Assembly (NCBI RefSeq): GCF_038397715.1
Contig: NZ_CP151633.1
Coordinates: forward strand, 186,001-250,000
Origin: Microbacterium sp. LWO14-1.2
GTDB lineage: Bacteria; Actinomycetota; Actinomycetes; Actinomycetales; Microbacteriaceae
Direction: 5' to 3'
Length of the DNA: 64,000 nt
A program made the position numbers and the translations under genes. The notes below the pieces were generated by a model, which searched no databases, was not told the origin of the DNA, and saw only the letters and a list, made by a program, of their open reading frames with translations. This document shows positions 4,613 to 21,325 of the stretch, in pieces (positions within the stretch are counted from its first letter, which is position 1; the number at the start of each line of letters is the position of its first letter).

Positions 4613-5290
4613 ATGGTCGCTGTGACACCGACTTCTCCCATCGACAACGCCGGCCCCGTCGCCGCGCCGCTCGAGACCACCGCTCGCAACCCGTGGGCCC
4701 GGTCCATCGGATCGCTCATCTTCGTGAGCCGCTGGCTGCAGGCGCCTCTGTACATCGGCCTGATCATCGCTCAGATCGTCTACGTCGTCGTCTTCATGGT
4801 GGAGCTCTGGCATCTGATCGTCGACGATGTGATGCACAACATCACGCACATCAACGAAGCCACGATCATGCTGAGCGTGCTCGGTCTCATCGACGTGGTG
4901 ATGATCGCGAACCTGCTCATCATGGTGATCATCGGCGGCTATGAGACCTTCGTGTCGCGCATCAACACGGACGGGCACCCCGATCAGCCCGAGTGGCTCT
5001 CGCACGTCAACGCGAACGTCCTGAAGGTGAAGCTCGCGATGGCGATCATCGGCATCTCATCGATCCACCTGCTGAAGACGTTCATCGCCGTCGGCAACAT
5101 GGACGAGGACGGCATCAGCAAGGCCGAGGCCGCCGGGCTGGGCAGTTACACGCCGACCGGAGTGCTGTGGCAGGTCGTGATCCACATGGTCTTCATCGTG
5201 TCCGCCCTGGCCCTCGCCTGGATCGACAAGATGTCGCAGAGCACCATCAAAGCCGCGCAGGCCGGCGCGAGCGGCACATCCGCGCACTGA
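4613..5290 (+). CDS. YqhA/UPF0114 (TIGR00645) family membrane protein
   Basis: A 225-residue inner-membrane protein with about four helices. The [19 protein letters not shown] and [19 protein letters not shown] blocks and the HLLKTFI segment identify the UPF0114/YqhA family, whose function is not established. It is divergent from TerC with only about 30 bp between the TerC leader and its start. A GTG at 4622 would remove three residues and is an equally possible start; neither has a convincing Shine-Dalgarno. The N-terminal 30 residues before the first helix look cytoplasmic. Confidence 0.85.
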
Positions 5291-14683: not shown

Positions 14684-15643
14684 TCACTTGCCGAGCAGTC
14701 GTCTGATCGCGGTCTCCGGAGATACCGAGAGATCGAGGGTTCGACCGCGTGCGTAGAGACGGAACACCCGCGGGTCGATATAGCTGTTGCGGGCGACGGC
14801 GATCGTGTTGCCCAGGGCGGACGCCGTCGCCTGCACGGCGAGCCGCTCCGCCTTGCGGCGCTCGTTCTTGCCCTCGAGCGGACCGATCCGCGCGAGGGCG
14901 TCGGCCGCGAGGATCGTCCCGTGCAGCGTGCGGAAGTCCTTGGCGGTGAACGCCGCCCCGGCGACCTCCCGCAGGTACGCGTTGATCTCGTTCGACGTCA
15001 GCCGCACGCGTCGGCGGCCCTTGCGATACGCGAGCAGCGTCGCTCGCGGAGAGCCCACCGCGAACTCCGACAGCGCCTCGGCGAGCGGCCCGTCGGTGAT
15101 CTCGATCGACGCGAGCTGCTTGCTCTTCGCGGGGAACTCGAGCGCCACCGTGTTCCCGTCGATCCGCACGTCGCGGCGACGGAGAGTGCTCAGGCCCCGA
15201 CTTCCGTGCTTGACGAGATAGCGCTCCGAGCCGATCCGCAGAGCTCCGTCGTCGAGCAGACGGAAGGCGACGGCGAGAGCGCGCTCCTTCGACAGCCCCG
15301 GTTCGCCGATCGCGCGGGTCACCCGTCGGCGGGCCGACGGCAGGGCAGCCGCGAGGCGGAGCGCTCTGGCGAACTTGCGCTGGTCGCGCCCCGCGCGCCA
15401 CAGCGGGTGATAGAGGTACTGGCGACGGCCGGCGTCATCGGTGCCGACGGCCTGGATGTGCGCCAACGGATCGGCCGCGATCCAGACATCGGTCCAGCGC
15501 GGCGGGATCACCAGATCCTGGATGCGTTCACGGTCGGCCTCGGCGACCGGCTGGTCTCCGGCATCGAGATAGCGGAACCCCGACCCCGAACGCACACGAC
15601 GGATACCCGGCTCCTCCCCCGGAACCACTCGTGTCAGCGCCAT
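14684..15643 (-). CDS. Type IB DNA topoisomerase
   Basis: A 319-residue poxvirus-like bacterial topoisomerase IB that relaxes supercoils through a 3'-phosphotyrosyl link. The N-terminal block IPPRWTDVWIAADPLAHIQA, the catalytic KDFRTLHGT helix and the ARNSYIDPRVF motif with the nucleophile near Tyr288 are present. ATG 15643 is supported by GGGGAGG seven bases upstream; the open frame beyond it is shadow sequence. It is divergent from the bacteriocin locus, with a 243-nt intergenic region. Confidence 0.92.
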   Translation of the reverse strand: MALTRVVPGEEPGIRRVRSGSGFRYLDAGDQPVAEADRERIQDLVIPPRWTDVWIAADPLAHIQAVGTDDAGRRQYLYHPLWRAGRDQRKFARALRLAAALPSARRRVTRAIGEPGLSKERALAVAFRLLDDGALRIGSERYLVKHGSRGLSTLRRRDVRIDGNTVALEFPAKSKQLASIEITDGPLAEALSEFAVGSPRATLLAYRKGRRRVRLTSNEINAYLREVAGAAFTAKDFRTLHGTILAADALARIGPLEGKNERRKAERLAVQATASALGNTIAVARNSYIDPRVFRLYARGRTLDLSVSPETAIRRLLGK

Positions 15644-15790
15644 GCGCAGCCTCCCCTGATCGGTCGTCTCGGCACGGTACCGACGATGCCCGACGCCACC
15701 GCGTGCGCAAAGGGCGTGGCGTCGGATGCGGGCGATCTGATAGTGCGCTCGCGCCTCCCTCCTGGACACATGACGGCACTCGGAAGCTCC

Positions 15791-15802
15791 GGTCGATCGA
15801 CC
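15791..15802. promoter_or_regulatory. Perfect 12-bp palindrome upstream of the bacteriocin precursor
   Basis: GGTCGATCGACC is its own reverse complement and lies 84 nt before the precursor start, in the region between topoisomerase IB and the bacteriocin operon. It is a candidate regulator site. I see no convincing promoter hexamers; TGGGCA (15812-15817) and TCATAT (15835-15840), 17 nt apart, are the best pair. Confidence 0.35.
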
Positions 15803-15886
15803 TAGGGCGCATGGGCACCGCGGCGCCACGATGTTCATATCGGGCGGAGCCCGGAACAGATCACCCGTCTCCGAGAAGAGGAAGCC

Positions 15887-16171
15887 ATGAATCACTCACC
15901 AATCGCGACGCGCGCGTCGCGCCGCACGATCGCCGTCGCCGTCATCCTCGGTACCGCTGGGCTCGTCGCCGCCGGCGTCAGCACGGCATACATCGCCGGC
16001 ATGTTCGGCCTCTCCACGGCGGTGGCGTCGCAGATCGTCAACGGAATCATGGTGGGTGGGGCAGTACTCGGGATCGCGCTGGCTGTCGCATCGGGAGGAC
16101 TCGCCGCGGTCGTCGTCGCCACCGCACGCTGGGCGATCTCGGCCTGGGGCAAGAAGGCGGCGATCGCCTGA
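15887..16171 (+). CDS. Circular bacteriocin precursor (AS-48/circularin A/uberolysin type)
   Basis: A 94-residue precursor with no Asp or Glu. Residues 1-34 look like a signal-type leader: Arg12-Arg13, a hydrophobic stretch and STA at 32-34. The core begins IAGMFGLSTAVASQIVNGI (36-54) and ends SAWGKKAAIA. This parallels circularin A (VAGALGVQTAAATTIVN opening, IASIASGGAG) and enterocin AS-48 (TAVGSGGLS, IKAYLKK, VIAW end): the VASGGL at 67-72, the Arg-x2-Ile-x2-Ala spacing and the Lys pair align. The mature ring would be 59 or 60 residues with net charge about +3. AGAGGAAG supports the start. Such peptides are head-to-tail cyclised, membrane-permeabilising and active on Gram-positives. The SpoIIM/DUF95 gene 2 nt downstream strongly supports the call. 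Confidence 0.87.
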   Translation: MNHSPIATRASRRTIAVAVILGTAGLVAAGVSTAYIAGMFGLSTAVASQIVNGIMVGGAVLGIALAVASGGLAAVVVATARWAISAWGKKAAIA

Positions 16172-16173
16172 CG

Positions 16174-16755
16174 ATGCCGTCCGTCGGAAGTGGGTTGCGG
16201 CGTCTCGGATCGCGCGAAGTCACGTTCGCGACCCTCGGCGCTCTCCTGCTTTTCCTGGTCGCGGCAGTCGTCTCGTATTGCTCTCTGGCCGGGAGGTCAG
16301 CCGGTGGCGGGGGATTCCTCGGCGCCCCGCTGGGCAGCGCGGACACACCACTCTTCTTAGCCATCGCCGCCCGCAACGCCTTCGCCGCGCTCGGGCTCTT
16401 CAGCGGGGTGGTGACGTTCGGCGTCGGATCGGTCGTCGGGGTGATCTTCCAGGGATGCATCGTCGGAGCGAGTACCGCCGCCGCGAGTACCGAGGTCGGC
16501 TTACCCAGCGCCGCGGGCTCGGTCATCGGTTACGCGATATTCGAGCTTCCTGCCCTCGTACTCGCGGCTTCCGCCGGTCTGGTGCCCCTCGCAACGGTGC
16601 TTCTGGCACCCGTCGAAGCAGCCGGCCTGTCGGCCTCGGTTCGATATCTCCGCTCACTCCGCCCCTCGCTCGCCTTGCTGAGCATCTCTTTGGTCCTGAT
16701 CGTCATCGGCGCAAGTGTCGAGACCATCCTCATCACATCACGGAGCGCCCCATGA
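16174..16755 (+). CDS. SpoIIM/DUF95-type membrane protein (circular bacteriocin maturation/export)
   Basis: A 193-residue membrane protein with about four to five helices. GYAIFELPALVLAASAGL (near residues 115-132) is the SpoIIM-superfamily motif (ELPA followed by a small-residue helix), preceded by RNAFAALGLFSG, which corresponds to the family's N-terminal membrane block. DUF95 proteins such as AS-48B and CclB are the most conserved partner in circular-bacteriocin loci and are needed for maturation or secretion. It starts 2 nt after the precursor stop and its own stop overlaps the next start (ATGA). The organism is not a spore former, so a sporulation role is unlikely. Confidence 0.85.
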   Translation: MPSVGSGLRRLGSREVTFATLGALLLFLVAAVVSYCSLAGRSAGGGGFLGAPLGSADTPLFLAIAARNAFAALGLFSGVVTFGVGSVVGVIFQGCIVGASTAAASTEVGLPSAAGSVIGYAIFELPALVLAASAGLVPLATVLLAPVEAAGLSASVRYLRSLRPSLALLSISLVLIVIGASVETILITSRSAP

Positions 16756-17375
16756 GACCACTTCCACCCTCCCCGCCGGGTTCAGCCACTCGGAGCGCGT
16801 CGACGGATTCCAGCCTCGCGATCACACGTCGCACCGATCGCTGGATCCTGTGGAGCGGGGCCGGGGCTCTGCTCGTCTTGTCGACCATGCGGCTCGCAGT
16901 GCAGCTCTTCCCACGCATCGAATCCGACGATCGAGTGCTGGCGATCACGGCGGCTCTCGAGGATCCCGCGCTTGCGGACCTCGCCGTGAGTGTCGGGGTG
17001 ACTCTTGCGATCGCTCTGACAGCCCTCTTCCAGACGATGTACGTCTTTCTGTGCGCCGCTATCGACGAGCGTCTGCTTCCCGGCACCATGGCCGCGACTC
17101 GCTCCCACGTCGACGGAGAAGGTCGCTGGATCGGTGTCGGTCCCGCGGTTCTTGTCGGACTGGCCTCCACACTGCCGGTCCAGATCCTGGCTGTTTCGCT
17201 CGCCGTGACCGCACCGAAAGACTCACCGCTTCTCGCGGTGTGGCTCACGGCCCTCGTGACGATCGGTGCTCTGTGGGCGCGTCGCCGACTTCGCCCCTCC
17301 GCTCGCGGCAGACGGAACACGTCCCTCATCGTCGTGGCTCTCGCGTGTGTCGCCGCGATCGCCCTTCTGTTCTGA
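16752..17375 (+). CDS. Unknown membrane protein in the bacteriocin operon
   Basis: A 207-residue protein I do not recognise. After a 30-residue cytoplasmic, Ser/Thr/Pro-rich N-terminus it has about five hydrophobic segments (around WILWSGAGALLVLS, LADLAVSVGVTLAIALTALF, VGPAVLVGLASTLPVQIL, LLAVWLTALVTIGALW and the C-terminal SLIVVALACVAAIALLF). It is translationally coupled to the DUF95 gene by ATGA. In known loci this slot is filled by AS-48C/CclC-like membrane proteins that assist production, so an accessory role in biosynthesis or export is my inference. It could also contribute to immunity. Confidence 0.75.
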   Translation: MRPLPPSPPGSATRSASTDSSLAITRRTDRWILWSGAGALLVLSTMRLAVQLFPRIESDDRVLAITAALEDPALADLAVSVGVTLAIALTALFQTMYVFLCAAIDERLLPGTMAATRSHVDGEGRWIGVGPAVLVGLASTLPVQILAVSLAVTAPKDSPLLAVWLTALVTIGALWARRRLRPSARGRRNTSLIVVALACVAAIALLF

Positions 17376-17391
17376 CCGACGAGGATCGACG

Positions 17392-17757
17392 ATGCAGACC
17401 TTCTACATCCGCACTCGGCGTATCGCCGCAGCCTTCCTCGGTCTCGTGCTCGGGTTCCACGCTGTGCTGGGACTCGCCCGCGATTTCGAGACCCGCAGTC
17501 TCGCAGCGGCAGCGGTCGCCGGGTGCGCTATCGCCGTCCTGGCAGCGGTCGCCGTGGCCCGAAGGCTTCGACTGCGCAGAGACATCACGGCATTCTTCAT
17601 CGCTGGAGTGTCGGCAGCCCTTTCCTGGAACGGCGAGGAAGGTGCGACGGCGATGCTGACGTATCTTCCCGCGCTCATCGCTGCGATCGCGTTCGCCACT
17701 CTGGCCGTCATCCTGCACGCGGAGAAGACGGGGTCCCAGATGAGGCACCGACTCTAG
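17392..17757 (+). CDS. Small basic membrane protein, candidate immunity/accessory protein
   Basis: A 121-residue protein with four predicted helices and strongly basic loops (IRTRR at the N-terminus, ARRLRLRRD in the middle, MRHRL at the end). Immunity proteins of circular bacteriocins are small, hydrophobic and high-pI but poorly conserved, which makes this the best immunity candidate in the locus. GAGG lies 8 nt before the ATG. Its TAG stop overlaps the GTG start of the large membrane protein by one base. I recognise no family, so function rests on context and physicochemical resemblance. Confidence 0.72.
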   Translation: MQTFYIRTRRIAAAFLGLVLGFHAVLGLARDFETRSLAAAAVAGCAIAVLAAVAVARRLRLRRDITAFFIAGVSAALSWNGEEGATAMLTYLPALIAAIAFATLAVILHAEKTGSQMRHRL

Positions 17758-19253
17758 TGTCCGACGTGGTGACAGCTGTGCGCGACGTTCGTGACGCGTC
17801 CGCGCTCGACTCCCTTGGGTGGAGGATGTCTCTGCGTACGTTCCGTGCCGCGCAGACATCGGCCTCCGTTCTCTTGCTGTGCGCGGGCGGCTTGGGAGCG
17901 GCCTGCGTATCCGACTGGGCCGCGCGCGCCGCCCCACAAGACGGGCGGGCTCTCACCCTGTCGGCCGCGGTGCTCACCTGCGTGTACTGTCTGGCGGTCC
18001 ACGCACTGCGCGAGATTTTCACGGTCCGACGCATTCGATTGGTCAACCATCCCTTCTCGGACTTCTTTCGAGCGTTGGACATCCCCCGAGCAACAGTGGT
18101 CATCGTGGAGGTCGCGCCGCGTCTCGTGAGACTCGGCTGCGTCTGCTGCGGGGTGTCCTGGGGATCCCTACCGCGGGCGTGGGGATATGCGACGACAGCC
18201 GAGGTGCTGGCGACTTCGGTTGCTCCCCTGGTCACCCTCCTCGGGATGCTTACATGCACGGTCTCCGTGGCGGCGTGGTCTCGGAACGGACGGCCCGCGC
18301 GCGCGTGGGCCGCTGTACTCGCCGGCGGCGGGTGCGGCATCCTCGTCGCGGGCACGCTCCACTGGGTCATAGCACTCGTGACAAGAGGCGGAGTGCCGTC
18401 TGGCCGCGAGATGGACCTCGCCGATGCCGCAGGCGCGTCAGTCGGGCCGTTGGTGGTCGCGAGTATCGCATTCGCGGTGACCGCGACCGTCGGCCTCCGC
18501 CGTCTCACTTCAGGAGATCCTGCAACGAGGCCGAAGAGTCTCGATCCCAGGACTCGACCTCGCCTCGCTGGTCGACTCGTCGCATACCCGTGGATCCGCG
18601 TGGTCTCCAGTGATCTCTCACCGACCTCGCGAAGCGCAGCGGTATGCCGATTCCTCCTGATCACGTGGATGCTCGGGACCGCCGCCGTGCTGCTCCCCAC
18701 CGAAGATCGAGTGCTCGTCAGCGCGATAGCGGACAACGCCGCTGTCAGTCGCGCCTGCTGCGTCATCGCCCTCGTCGTGGGATTGACGTTGTCGGAGTTG
18801 CTCTGCGAATGGATCGGGCCGTCGACTCTTGCTCTGCGCTGGCGGGCACAGTGGGAGGCTGGTGCCGACGTGTGGCCGCTTGCCCTCGGCCCGCTCCTCG
18901 TCGCTCTCGGCCCCATCACACTGGTCGGCGTCCCGCTCGCGCTCGGCATGGAATCACTGGGCGGCAACGGGGTCCTCCCGCTGTGCGTGCTGTGGTCGGC
19001 CCTCGCCAGCGCGTGGACGGTCACGGCGATCATGCCGAGCGGCCCGTCATCCGCTGACGGGACCGCCTCGACCACGCTCTCCTCCGCCTTGCTCTGCGTC
19101 GTCGGTTCCGTCGCGATGATGGTGACGATGCTGACCGCGGCGGAAGCGCATGCCGCGTGGGCGGCGCTCCCCATGTCCGCGCTCGCTTTGGGAGGTGCAT
19201 CATGGGCGGCGAAACGTCGCGTTCTCAGCCTTCCGTCGAGGCCGTTGGCCTGA
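17757..19253 (+). CDS. Large polytopic membrane protein, putative ABC permease of the bacteriocin locus
   Basis: A 498-residue protein with roughly twelve hydrophobic segments in two sets of about six, separated by a basic cytoplasmic loop near residues 245-285. The segment AVHALREIFTVRRIRLVNHPF lies in an early cytoplasmic loop. No ATPase motif is present. The next gene encodes an ABC ATPase that starts 52 nt before this gene ends, so I infer a two-subunit exporter in which this protein forms the channel. GTG 17757 overlaps the previous stop; an ATG at 17826 is a possible alternative. Cysteine is unusually frequent for a membrane protein. Not related at sight to ABC-2 permeases. Confidence 0.75.
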   Translation: MSDVVTAVRDVRDASALDSLGWRMSLRTFRAAQTSASVLLLCAGGLGAACVSDWAARAAPQDGRALTLSAAVLTCVYCLAVHALREIFTVRRIRLVNHPFSDFFRALDIPRATVVIVEVAPRLVRLGCVCCGVSWGSLPRAWGYATTAEVLATSVAPLVTLLGMLTCTVSVAAWSRNGRPARAWAAVLAGGGCGILVAGTLHWVIALVTRGGVPSGREMDLADAAGASVGPLVVASIAFAVTATVGLRRLTSGDPATRPKSLDPRTRPRLAGRLVAYPWIRVVSSDLSPTSRSAAVCRFLLITWMLGTAAVLLPTEDRVLVSAIADNAAVSRACCVIALVVGLTLSELLCEWIGPSTLALRWRAQWEAGADVWPLALGPLLVALGPITLVGVPLALGMESLGGNGVLPLCVLWSALASAWTVTAIMPSGPSSADGTASTTLSSALLCVVGSVAMMVTMLTAAEAHAAWAALPMSALALGGASWAAKRRVLSLPSRPLA

Positions 19254-19870
19254 GCGTCCGTTACGCTCCCGATCGCCCTGTTCTCGAGAACGTCACGTGC
19301 GGATTGGAGGGCGTGGGCATTGTGCGCCTCGACGCACCGAACGGCTTTGGAAAGACGACCTTCGTAGAGGCCGCATCGGGTTACCTGCGCCCTACATCGG
19401 GACGGTTGTTCGTGAACGGCCTCGACGCGCACGATCCCCGATCGAGGGCCGACCGACGCGTGTGCCGGTCGACTCCGGCGCTCCATCCACACCTCAGCAT
19501 CGTCGACCATCTCGCCGTGGCCGCCGACCTGGCATCCGTCCCACGCTCGGCCGCAGTCGAGCGCGCCGCGAGGTTCGGGCTCGAGGAGTGGTTCGACACA
19601 CGGACATCGGCGCTCTCGACAGGAACGACACGCAAGCTCTGGTATCTCCTCTGCACGATGGGTCGATTCACGGTGGCCCTGCTGGACGAGCCCTTCAACG
19701 GCGTCGATGAGGCGTGCACCGCCGAGATGATCGACGAGTGGGAGTCGTGGCGGCGCACGGCGCTCATCGTTCTGGTGTCGCACACGATCCCGCCCGATCT
19801 CCGCATCGACTCCCGTGTGCAGCTCACGAATGGTCCGAAGGAACCTCCTCGTACGAGGACGCCGCGGTGA
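19202..19870 (+). CDS. ABC transporter ATP-binding protein with atypical motifs (bacteriocin export/immunity)
   Basis: A 222-residue nucleotide-binding subunit. The Walker A is APNGFGKTT (first Gly replaced by Ala), the signature is LSTGTTRKL instead of LSGGQ, Walker B is VALLDEP and the H-loop is VSHTI. The usual Q-loop Gln is not evident after HDPRSRAD. Such deviations resemble antibiotic-type exporters such as the bacitracin and lantibiotic immunity ATPases, and the key Lys, Glu and His remain, so it should hydrolyse ATP. GGGAGG six bases before ATG 19202 fixes the start inside the permease gene. It probably energises secretion of, or self-protection from, the circular peptide. Confidence 0.85.
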   Translation: MGGETSRSQPSVEAVGLSVRYAPDRPVLENVTCGLEGVGIVRLDAPNGFGKTTFVEAASGYLRPTSGRLFVNGLDAHDPRSRADRRVCRSTPALHPHLSIVDHLAVAADLASVPRSAAVERAARFGLEEWFDTRTSALSTGTTRKLWYLLCTMGRFTVALLDEPFNGVDEACTAEMIDEWESWRRTALIVLVSHTIPPDLRIDSRVQLTNGPKEPPRTRTPR

Positions 19871-19900
19871 GTTCTCCACAGGGCCTACAGAATAGCCGCC

Positions 19901-19924
19901 TGTCCCCATACGAGGACATACGCT
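19901..19924 (+). promoter_or_regulatory. Dyad and -10 box before the LuxR-type gene
   Basis: TGTCC-N8-GGACA (19901-19918) is immediately followed by TACGCT (19919-19924), a TANNNT -10 hexamer that ends 6 nt before ATG 19931. No -35 stands out. The layout suits a leaderless, regulator-controlled transcript. TACGAGGAC inside the dyad also occurs at 19852-19860 near the end of the ATPase gene. Confidence 0.4.
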
Positions 19925-19930
19925 GGCGAC

Positions 19931-20242
19931 ATGCATGATTCCACTCACCTCCGACCGGTCACGCGTCAGTCGCGAACGGGTCATTCGATCCCGCGGAGCG
20001 CTGCCCCGGCCGCGGTCGCCGAGACCGAGATGCCTGCGTTGACGCCGCGAGAGATGGCGATTCTCCGTGAGCTAGCCTTCGGCAAATCGACTGCCGAGAT
20101 CGCCGCCGGCGTTCACCTGTCGCAGGGGACGGTGAAGGGCTACCTGAGCTCGATCATGGCGAAATGGGATGCGCGGGACCGCGTCGAAGTTCTCGTTCTG
20201 GCAGTGCGGTCAGGCACGATTCGCATCCCCGAGCACCAGTGA
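19931..20242 (+). CDS. Solo LuxR-type (GerE) helix-turn-helix regulator
   Basis: A 103-residue regulator consisting of a 35-residue, probably disordered N-terminus and one GerE domain (LTPREMAILRELAFGKSTAE then HLSQGTVKGYLSSIMAKWDA). There is no receiver or ligand-binding domain, so it is not a standard response regulator or quorum receptor. It lies 60 nt after the ATPase gene, has no Shine-Dalgarno and is preceded by a dyad and -10 box. I infer that it is the cluster regulator of the bacteriocin locus. An internal ATG near 20030 would retain only the DNA-binding domain. Confidence 0.83.
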   Translation: MHDSTHLRPVTRQSRTGHSIPRSAAPAAVAETEMPALTPREMAILRELAFGKSTAEIAAGVHLSQGTVKGYLSSIMAKWDARDRVEVLVLAVRSGTIRIPEHQ

Positions 20243-20335
20243 CCAGGTGCGGAGTGCTCGCGTGCGGTCGGCGCCGGGCAAAGGACGAAGGCGGGGAATT
20301 GTTCGCGGACGCCACGGTCTGCCATCCTCATGTGT

Positions 20336-21325
20336 ATGACGATGTCACTCGATCAGTTCCGTGAGGCCCTCAAGCGAGCGGACATGCGCGGCCCGCTGGG
20401 TCTGCAGCTCAGTGACGTCGAAGCGCAGCAGGTGGCCGACGATCCGGCGTCCTCTCAGGGCTGGTACGCCTACTGGCTCTCCCTCCAGCCCGCCGCCGCG
20501 CAGCAGACTCCCCCGCCACCCGCTGCGCCCTCCGTCTCGCCGGAACCGGCTGCCGGCGCACCCACGGCCGCGCCGGGCTTCGACGCCGCACCGCCGCCCT
20601 TCTCCCCTGGCCCGCAGCACGCCCAGACGCCCACGTCGCCGTACCCGGGCGCTCCCACCGCGCAGTACCCGGGCGCTCCCACATCGTCATACCCCGGTGC
20701 ACCGGCACCGAACGCGCAGCCGACGGCGGCGTACGCTCCGACGGCGGTGACGGCCGGCGGCGACCCCGGCTCCCCTCCTTTTGCAACCGCGCAGTATGCC
20801 GGGATGCCGTCGGACGGCGCCCCGGCGAAGAAGCGCAACGTCGGTCTGTGGGTGACTCTGTCGATCCTCGGTGCGCTGCTGCTGATCATCGCCATCGTCG
20901 TCGTCACGGCCTTCACGACGGCACGGCACTGGACCAAGGTCGACGTGCCGGAGCAGCCGGAGACCTTCCACAGTGAGGAATACGAGACCGGTCGCTACGA
21001 CGTCTCGATGGACACCGTGAACCCCTGCTACGTCAACCAGGACTGGACCGACTGCACCAACCTGCTGCAGGCCAGCTACGACGCGAACTGCGCCGGTGTG
21101 GAGCTGACCGAGACCGCAACGGCGATCTGCGCGGACTACAGCAACGCGATCAGCCAGATGCGGGCGCAGGACAGCGAAGGCGCGTACGTCGCGACACTCG
21201 GCACGTATGGGAATCTGACGCGGACGCCCGAGATCGACACCCGACAGGTATCGAACGACGACTACCGTCCCGCCGAGACCCACGAGGCCGTCTGCTACCT
21301 CGGCTTCCTCGGAGAGTGCGAGTGA
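20336..21325 (+). CDS. Single-pass membrane protein with proline-rich cytoplasmic region
   Basis: A 329-residue protein I do not recognise. It has a small N-terminal domain (1-50, ending QGWYAYWLSLQ), a Pro/Ala/Gln-rich linker (51-165) with three PGAP repeats around 104-123, one membrane helix (171-195) and an extracytoplasmic domain with six cysteines, likely three disulfides. This architecture is common in actinobacterial envelope proteins. ATGs at 20330, 20336 and 20342 are all in frame and the exact start is uncertain. It follows the LuxR gene by 93 nt with higher GC, so I treat it as outside the bacteriocin operon, though a link cannot be excluded. Confidence 0.75.
   Translation: MTMSLDQFREALKRADMRGPLGLQLSDVEAQQVADDPASSQGWYAYWLSLQPAAAQQTPPPPAAPSVSPEPAAGAPTAAPGFDAAPPPFSPGPQHAQTPTSPYPGAPTAQYPGAPTSSYPGAPAPNAQPTAAYAPTAVTAGGDPGSPPFATAQYAGMPSDGAPAKKRNVGLWVTLSILGALLLIIAIVVVTAFTTARHWTKVDVPEQPETFHSEEYETGRYDVSMDTVNPCYVNQDWTDCTNLLQASYDANCAGVELTETATAICADYSNAISQMRAQDSEGAYVATLGTYGNLTRTPEIDTRQVSNDDYRPAETHEAVCYLGFLGECE

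What the first reader, a model, noticed from the sequence alone, without database searches (positions are those of the whole stretch)
15887..20242. Candidate circular bacteriocin gene cluster in an actinobacterium
A 94-residue, acid-free precursor with an AS-48/circularin-like core is followed directly by a SpoIIM/DUF95 membrane protein, two unknown membrane proteins, a 12-helix permease-like protein, an ABC ATPase and a solo LuxR regulator. All are co-directional, with overlaps or short gaps up to the ATPase gene. Known circular-bacteriocin loci (AS-48, circularin A, uberolysin) share a precursor, DUF95 protein, ATPase and small membrane/immunity proteins. Described examples are overwhelmingly from Firmicutes, so an actinobacterial locus with unfamiliar accessory genes would be new or little described.
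Basis: partly seen in the sequence, partly recalled or inferred. Interest (0 to 1): 0.95.

Follow-up and report, generated by a model that had tools for sequence, protein, structure and literature searches.

The report
Ring-shaped bacteriocin genes in Microbacterium
A Microbacterium genome carries six adjoining genes, found in the same order in several other families of actinobacteria, that are predicted to make and export a ring-shaped antibacterial peptide of a class described mostly from Firmicutes.

Summary
The finding holds. Window 15887-19870 (+) has six tightly packed genes: A precursor, B SpoIIM/DUF95 protein, C and D small membrane proteins, E a 498-aa protein with about 11 hydrophobic segments, F an ABC ATPase; a LuxR-type gene follows. 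The precursor matches PF09221 (E 1.4e-4) and TIGR03651 (E 9.3e-5) over nearly their whole length, but under both curated cut-offs; among solved chains only AS-48 and NKR-5-3B match, weakly. Conservation steps up at Tyr35/Ile36, which suggests a 35-residue leader and a 59-residue acid-free core. B-C-D-E-F follow A in that order in 12 of 13 named actinobacterial loci; the one locus that trained nothing and resembles no training row, low-GC Galliscardovia, agrees. B and F correspond to AS-48 genes; C, D and E match no AS-48 gene tested and no Pfam family above cut-off. The 'solo LuxR' is likely a response regulator without its receiver. Actinobacterial cases are already noted in print and by NCBI names, so this is a new variant of a known kind. 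Cyclisation and activity are untested; the fold test was inconclusive.

The parts
15887..15991 (+). gene A, leader part (predicted): 35 residues, basic N-end then a hydrophobic stretch
   Evidence: Boundary from the conservation step (mean pairwise identity 0.37 for residues 1-34, 0.76 for 35-94). No other in-frame start codon before residue 39.
15992..16171 (+). gene A, core part (Ile36-Ala94, 59 residues, net +3, no D/E/C) and stop; predicted to be joined head to tail
   Evidence: PF09221 covers 37-94 (profile 1-66/67) and TIGR03651 covers 35-94 (2-72/73). No internal gap in 14 aligned cores. Ring closure is inferred. The join could also be Tyr35-Ala94.
16174..16755 (+). gene B, SpoIIM/DUF95 membrane protein, 193 aa
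   Evidence: PF01944 E 1.5e-10, 41.7 bits against cut-off 26.9. The AS-48 plasmid has a gene annotated stage II sporulation protein M; hhalign to it: E 3.7e-3 over 128 columns but probability only 9%.
16752..17375 (+). gene C, membrane protein of 207 aa, about 5 hydrophobic segments, pI 10.9
   Evidence: No Pfam family above cut-off (sub-threshold DUF7937 E 0.0024) and no NCBIfam match. Conserved in position in relatives. C-like proteins also occur outside bacteriocin loci.
17392..17757 (+). gene D, small cationic membrane protein of 121 aa, pI 11.3; immunity candidate (inferred)
   Evidence: only sub-threshold Pfam matches
17757..19253 (+). gene E, 498-aa protein with about 11 hydrophobic segments; inferred membrane partner of F
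   Evidence: No Pfam match for P0004 at E <= 1; among 11 family members scanned the only match is one at E 0.095. Relatives. Similar size and segment count to the large AS-48 membrane protein but no sequence match.
19202..19870 (+). gene F, ABC-transporter ATPase, 222 aa
   Evidence: PF00005 E 1e-11; hhalign to the AS-48 ATPase E 4.5e-21, probability 99%
19202..19253 (+). E-F overlap of 52 nt, kept in several relatives; suggests translational coupling
   Evidence: 52 nt in 6 of 10 loci measured, 49 nt in 2, 34 nt in 2, all in the same relative frame (L007 and L024 are the same contig; starts were called by a heuristic; L025, L026, L027, L032 not measured)
19931..20242 (+). LuxR/GerE-type DNA-binding protein, 103 aa, without a receiver domain
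   Evidence: PF00196 E 8.4e-15. DNA-binding part 62% identical over 76 aa to the full response regulator beside the sister cluster in L007, against 58% over 66 aa for an own-genome paralogue.

Best explanation
Window 15887-19870 holds a co-directional six-gene set (A-F) that is predicted to make, cyclise and export a circular bacteriocin of the circularin A/uberolysin/AS-48 kind. Shown: gene A belongs by profile to the precursor family, with a variable N-terminal part and a conserved C-terminal 59-60 residues; B is a SpoIIM/DUF95 protein; F is an ABC ATPase; A-F keep one order in several actinobacterial families. Inferred: the leader would hold the precursor at the membrane and be cut between Tyr35 and Ile36 (or just before Tyr35), probably by a host protease, since no peptidase was recognised in the set. 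B, with C and/or E, would form the membrane complex that joins Ile36 to Ala94. E and F would be the exporter pair that also contributes to immunity, and D would be the dedicated immunity protein. The released ring would permeabilise the membranes of competing Gram-positive bacteria. The LuxR-type protein is likely a response regulator that lost its receiver, so control by a sensor kinase has probably been lost here.
For: Near whole-length PF09221 and TIGR03651 matches of A; 25 of 26 rows of the precursor alignment, the window's included, match each profile at E <= 0.01. AS-48 (two sequences, E 0.0068 and 0.018) and NKR-5-3B (E 0.13) are the only matches up to E 1 among solved chains. SpoIIM is above its Pfam cut-off. 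Conservation jumps at Tyr35/Ile36, where both profiles begin, with no internal gap in 14 cores. B-C-D-E-F follow A in the same order in 12 of 13 named loci. Eleven of those 12 supplied or nearly match rows of the family models used, so the independent case is L026 (Galliscardovia, locus GC 0.44): B 8.5e-43, C 7.3e-33, D 3.2e-11, E 6.4e-48, F 8.8e-81, in order. Four further Microbacteriaceae loci (L018-L021) show the same arrangement, with D in all four and E in L018-L020 placed by position and hydropathy only. A minimum set of five to seven genes, and precursor, SpoIIM, ABC transporter and small cationic immunity protein as shared features, are given in PMC6131525 (section 5 read).
Against: P0001 itself is under both curated cut-offs: 22.5 against 23.6 bits, and 22.7 against 30.7. 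Profile comparison with AS-48 is weak for A (E 3.9e-4, probability 35%, 36 columns) and B (E 3.7e-3, probability 9%). AlphaFold models of precursor and core are low-confidence (pLDDT 63 and 61) and show three and two long helices rather than a clear saposin-like bundle; Foldseek with the core model found nothing in PDB. C, D and E have no detectable homologue among the AS-48 proteins compared, although those profiles held two sequences each. C-like proteins also occur without a SpoIIM or precursor match in four other genomes read. No activity, mass or expression data exist. The roles of C, D and E are by position and size only.
Confidence: 0.85

Rival explanations
1. The genes are an intact but poorly expressed or silent circular-bacteriocin cluster: loss of the accessory ABC pair (G, H) and of the receiver half of the regulator leaves it without its normal signal.
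For: Sister clusters L007/L023 have G, H, a full response regulator and a histidine kinase next to the set. The window has only the DNA-binding half and no G/H after F. Cluster GC3 is 0.73-0.84 against 0.85-0.92 in six neighbours, as for a recent arrival. No sigma-70-like promoter match (actinobacterial promoters may differ).
Against: All six frames are open with tight spacing. Relatives without G/H exist (L032, L033, L034). A free GerE-type domain can still bind DNA (general knowledge).
Confidence: 0.25
2. The peptide is exported and active as a linear helical bacteriocin (leaderless-like); SpoIIM serves export only and no ring is formed.
For: The DUF95 knock-out in leucocyclicin Q accumulated circular peptide inside cells, so SpoIIM may serve secretion (PMC6131525, passages). 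No cyclase or peptidase was recognised in the set.
Against: The core matches circular families to its last residue, has no internal gap in 14 cores, and has hydrophobic ends. No enzyme had been identified for this step in described clusters either (PMC8659200, section 9 read).
Confidence: 0.08
3. A is an ordinary small membrane subunit of an ABC system and B-F are a transporter unrelated to bacteriocins.
For: A alone is below curated cut-offs; every other product from B to F is a membrane or transport protein.
Against: Some relatives of A score better (best E 7.6e-8 and 5.3e-7) and several bear circular-bacteriocin names. The variable-front/conserved-core pattern is that of a precursor.
Confidence: 0.04

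Closest known systems
Enterocin AS-48 cluster (as-48ABCC1DD1; plasmid pPD1, L036; gene letters assigned by me from order, the record calls most of them hypothetical)
   Same: Leader of 35 residues by the recalled AS-48 boundary, and FG core motif aligned; SpoIIM protein; ATPase of nearly the same length; a large protein with 11 hydrophobic segments; a small membrane protein
   Different: Gene order A-SpoIIM-C-D-E-F instead of A-B-SpoIIM-C1-D-D1; C, D, E show no sequence match to the as-48B or D1 proteins; core 59 rather than 70 residues; no second transporter operon after F
Circularin A / uberolysin / NKR-5-3B family (TIGR03651, PF09221)
   Same: Core aligns over nearly the whole profile; a leader of 35 falls in the reported range of 2-48 residues (PMC8534725 and PMC8659200, passages)
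   Different: Below curated cut-offs; high-GC actinobacterial host; C, D, E without known family. The circularin and uberolysin gene sets themselves were not compared here.
Sister clusters in Microbacterium sp. GCS4 (L007 = L024) and M. paulum (L023)
   Same: A-F in the same order, 38-68% identical between L007 and the window, same 52-nt E-F overlap
   Different: They add a second ABC pair (G, H), a full response regulator on the other strand and a histidine kinase
Second layout in Microbacteriaceae (L008, L022)
   Same: A-type precursor, SpoIIM, two ATPases, 524-aa membrane protein
   Different: Order is A - small membrane protein - SpoIIM - G - H - E - F; their large and small membrane proteins do not match E and C by hhalign (two rows each)

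Membership tests
Circular (head-to-tail cyclised) bacteriocins, circularin A/uberolysin/AS-48 kind | Precursor with family core | tested here: met
   PF09221 E 1.4e-4 and TIGR03651 E 9.3e-5 over nearly whole profiles, but 1.1 and 8 bits under the curated cut-offs; 25 of 26 rows of the alignment match each at E <= 0.01; PF09221.17 is listed for P0001 in the precomputed table
Circular (head-to-tail cyclised) bacteriocins, circularin A/uberolysin/AS-48 kind | SpoIIM/DUF95 gene in the cluster | tested here: met
   B: PF01944 41.7 bits, cut-off 26.9
Circular (head-to-tail cyclised) bacteriocins, circularin A/uberolysin/AS-48 kind | ABC ATPase with a membrane partner | tested here: met
   F: PF00005, match to the AS-48 ATPase. 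That E is the partner is inferred from position, overlap and hydropathy.
Circular (head-to-tail cyclised) bacteriocins, circularin A/uberolysin/AS-48 kind | Small, cationic, hydrophobic immunity protein | tested here: inconclusive
   D has 121 aa, pI 11.3, GRAVY 0.78 in the window; 13 of 14 D rows have pI 8.0 or more, L007 has 6.1 (some rows placed by position). No match to the AS-48 D1 protein.
Circular (head-to-tail cyclised) bacteriocins, circularin A/uberolysin/AS-48 kind | Compact 4-5 helix saposin-like fold of the core | tested here: inconclusive
   pLDDT 63 (precursor) and 61 (core), pTM 0.33 and 0.29, helical; no Foldseek match in PDB for the core model
Circular (head-to-tail cyclised) bacteriocins, circularin A/uberolysin/AS-48 kind | N-to-C peptide bond in the product and antibacterial activity | not testable with these tools
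   Needs mass spectrometry and an inhibition assay
AS-48 subfamily | Homologues of all of as-48ABCC1DD1 | tested here: not met
   Precursor (weakly), SpoIIM (weakly) and ATPase match; the as-48B and D1 proteins have no match in C, D or E (two-row profiles; no C1 profile was built). Not filed as AS-48 subfamily.
NarL-type two-component response regulator (for the LuxR gene) | Receiver domain followed by GerE DNA-binding domain | tested here: not met
   Only GerE found in P0006; the L007 relative has both

The most novel reading that the evidence does not exclude
Actinobacteria have their own branch of circular-bacteriocin machinery: a fixed six-gene module in which only precursor, SpoIIM and ATPase are shared with Firmicutes, while the three other membrane proteins (C, D, E) are a separate invention that does the maturation, export and immunity work. 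The module moves between families from 44% to over 70% GC, and in this Microbacterium it is driven by a headless, always-on response regulator.
Probability: 0.3. Interest if true: 0.62.

Novelty: new variant of a known kind. Interest (0 to 1): 0.46.

Why it matters
How circular bacteriocins lose their leader and close into a ring had no assigned enzyme in the papers seen (PMC8659200 section 9; PMC6131525 passages). A compact six-gene set, kept in order across distant actinobacteria and sharing detectably only precursor, SpoIIM and ATPase with AS-48, narrows the candidates: what is common to both is likely core machinery, and C, D, E are the parts to test for replaceable roles. It also points to a little-studied source of stable antibacterial peptides in high-GC bacteria.

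Tried and rejected
AlphaFold on the precursor and on the core, plus Foldseek with the core model against PDB, gave nothing usable. Three of six hits in the genus search (G121, G002, G011) lie inside larger membrane proteins (339, 161 and 253 aa) with no SpoIIM match nearby and were dropped as false; 3 of 198 genomes keep a real cluster. The single-sequence search with E found 2 proteins, one of them the window's own, and 1 of 398 genomes; it misses the divergent proteins in E's position beside precursors in the same draw, so it says nothing on specificity. C as a bacteriocin-only marker was rejected: of 398 genomes, 11 have a C match; five of these carry the cluster, four (read as L071-L074) have a C-like gene with no SpoIIM or precursor match, in three of them beside a glycosyltransferase-like gene (my reading of the sequence, no family call), and two weak hits (G373, G378) were not examined. 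G452, with the second layout, has a precursor but no C match. Homology of E to the large AS-48 protein: no signal. No plasmid match for A and no near phage match for the cluster (megablast only). An E. faecium NKR-5-3B-like locus (L038) was fetched as comparator but shows no SpoIIM gene in its (incomplete) annotation, so it was not used. Promoter/terminator scan: nothing above chance. The precursor search of genome contigs with the single sequence found nothing; the alignment found 13 loci. P0027 was left out of alignment A1 as a short piece.
Full report
OBSERVATION. Spacing is tight from A to F: 2-nt gap, 4-nt overlap, 16-nt gap, 1-nt overlap, 52-nt overlap. LuxR follows after 60 nt. A codon-usage caller trained on the window chooses all seven frames. 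The window lies in a 3.78-Mb single-contig genome. The genus is Microbacterium in the genome set used: contig G195:C4 of the same genus has the length (299,757) and the match of Microbacterium sp. GCS4 contig NZ_LGYE01000004.1.

PRECURSOR. P0001 matches PF09221 at residues 37-94 over profile positions 1-66 of 67 (E 1.4e-4, 22.5 bits, cut-off 23.6), and TIGR03651 at 35-94 over 2-72 of 73 (E 9.3e-5, 22.7 bits, cut-off 30.7). So it is significant over the core but under the curated cut-offs. In a library search 26 other proteins matched at E <= 0.01; PF09221.17 is precomputed for 25 of the 27 listed, P0001 included, and two Streptomyces proteins carry the NCBI name uberolysin/carnocyclin family circular bacteriocin. 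Scanned one by one, 25 of 26 rows of alignment A1 (the window and 25 of the 26 relatives) match each profile at E <= 0.01. Against solved chains, up to E 1, only AS-48 (E 0.0068 and 0.018) and NKR-5-3B (E 0.13) appear.

LEADER AND CORE. Mean pairwise identity is 0.37 over residues 1-34 and 0.76 over 35-94. The step is at Tyr35/Ile36. No in-frame start codon lies between Met1 and residue 39, so the window precursor must carry the long front part; some relatives have a Met just before the Tyr, where a two-residue leader would be possible. In 14 aligned cores there is no internal gap; 13 end at the same column, and L031 runs five residues longer (the core starts were set by me from the alignment). 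The core has no D, E or C, two K and one R, and its ring mass would be 5562.6 Da (60-residue variant 5725.8 Da). The AS-48 leader is also 35 residues by the recalled boundary, and the FG motif aligns.

OTHER GENES. B is SpoIIM (PF01944). By hhalign against two-row AS-48 profiles, F matches the ATPase (E 4.5e-21, probability 99%), A the precursor weakly (E 3.9e-4, probability 35%, 36 columns) and B the SpoIIM protein weakly (E 3.7e-3, probability 9%, 128 columns); C, D and E gave no match to the as-48B or D1 proteins. With such thin profiles this is weak evidence of absence. Pfam: P0004 has no match at E <= 1, and of 11 E proteins one had a match at E 0.095; of 11 C proteins one matches DUF7937 (E 0.0024) and one PqiA (E 0.052), both under cut-off; D has only sub-threshold matches. 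E has 11 hydrophobic segments by a simple count, as has the large AS-48 protein. The E-F overlap is 52 nt in 6 of 10 loci measured, 49 in two and 34 in two.

CONSERVATION. Alignment A1 found 13 named loci: Microbacterium paulum, Microbacterium sp. GCS4, an Actinomycetales MAG, Galliscardovia ingluviei, two Arthrobacter, a Micrococcaceae MAG, Cellulomonas alba, Streptomyces pathocidini, two Sinomonas, Cutibacterium avidum and Pseudarthrobacter (their families, named from recall: Microbacteriaceae, Bifidobacteriaceae, Micrococcaceae, Cellulomonadaceae, Propionibacteriaceae, Streptomycetaceae). In 12 of 13 B-C-D-E-F follow A in the same order. Nine of the 12 loci supplied rows to the family models and two more are near copies of a training locus, so the fair test is L026 (Galliscardovia, locus GC 0.44), which matched all five in order with E from 3.2e-11 to 8.8e-81. 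The exception, L031 (Streptomyces), has a precursor followed by a 476-aa gene on the other strand, with no match to B-F. In Microbacteriaceae, 6 of 398 genomes have a precursor match and 3 of 198 in the genus after dropping three false hits. One of 396 genomes drawn across the phylum matched, the window's own: the trait is sparse. L018-L021 show the same arrangement, with D in all four and E in L018-L020 assigned by position and hydropathy (E is only 353-376 aa in those three); L008 and L022 have a second layout.

ARRIVAL AND REGULATION. GC3 of A-F is 0.73-0.84 against 0.85-0.92 in six neighbours. In three congeners read (G001, G005, G002, of the ten same-genus genomes other than the window's with a topoisomerase match) the same flanking genes, topoisomerase IB and the gene at 20342, enclose an MFS-like transporter (my reading, no family call), with a 164-166-aa gene in two of them, and no cluster. 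The best relative of that transporter in the window genome is 27% identical and elsewhere. So here the cluster stands where that gene stands in the congeners read. The LuxR product has only a GerE domain. It matches the DNA-binding half of the full response regulator beside L007 (62% over 76 aa) and L023 (65% over 71 aa), ahead of the nearest own-genome paralogue compared (58% over 66 aa). The margin is small, so truncation of a cluster-linked regulator is likely but not proven; in L007 that regulator is on the other strand, past G and H, next to a histidine kinase.

MECHANISM. From the published shared features (PMC6131525 section 5) A is precursor, B the SpoIIM protein, E/F the transporter and D the best immunity candidate. 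B is presumed to act in cyclisation or export; the leucocyclicin Q DUF95 knock-out kept ring peptide inside cells. No peptidase was recognised in the set, as in almost all clusters of PMC8534725 (passages). These role assignments are inference.

PRIOR ART. Actinobacterial cases in print: 2 precursors beside 6,925 in Firmicutes and 1 in Thermotogae (PMC8534725, passages); five clusters in propionibacteria (PMC5695211, one passage). The held text of PMC7132975 has no occurrence of Actinobacteria, Streptomyces or Actinomyc-. PMC11580447 (passages) treats leaderless peptides and notes the scarcity of bacteriocin knowledge in Actinomycetota. Ten searches of the paper library listed no paper whose title or abstract start describes this A-F module in Microbacteriaceae; the lists were partly capped, subscription papers are not held, and supplementary tables were not read.

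VERDICT. A real member of a known kind in a variant form: actinobacterial gene set, C/D/E without known family, and a receiver-less regulator. Structure, cyclisation and activity are open.

Noticed in passing
window 15789-15805: A stretch about 80-100 nt before gene A (ccggtcgatcgacctag) resembles one in the L007 and L023 upstream regions (ccggacaatcggcctac in L007); a possible shared promoter or regulator site (alignment).
   Followed up: no
window 15690-15725: Perfect 10-nt inverted repeat with 16 nt between the arms, between topoisomerase IB and gene A; no T run after it.
   Followed up: no
window 15643-20342 against L056, L057, L058: The cluster occupies a site where the three congeners read have an MFS-like transporter between the same flanking genes; no close copy of it was found elsewhere in the window genome.
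   Followed up: partly
L071, L072, L073, L074: C-like proteins with four to six hydrophobic segments and no bacteriocin genes around them; in L071, L072 and L074 they directly follow a gene that looks like a membrane glycosyltransferase. A small unnamed membrane family.
   Followed up: partly
L031 (Streptomyces pathocidini) 5035-5259: Orphan circular-bacteriocin-like precursor with no SpoIIM or ATPase match on its 7.8-kb contig and a C-terminal extension of five residues.
   Followed up: no
L008 and L022: A second, differently ordered circular-bacteriocin layout in Microbacteriaceae with its own large and small membrane proteins; in L008 a response-regulator-like and a histidine-kinase-like gene lie alongside.
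   Followed up: partly
L018 and L020: The gene caller over-extends the SpoIIM start through the precursor in another frame; the precursors there end in ...LAIR.
   Followed up: no
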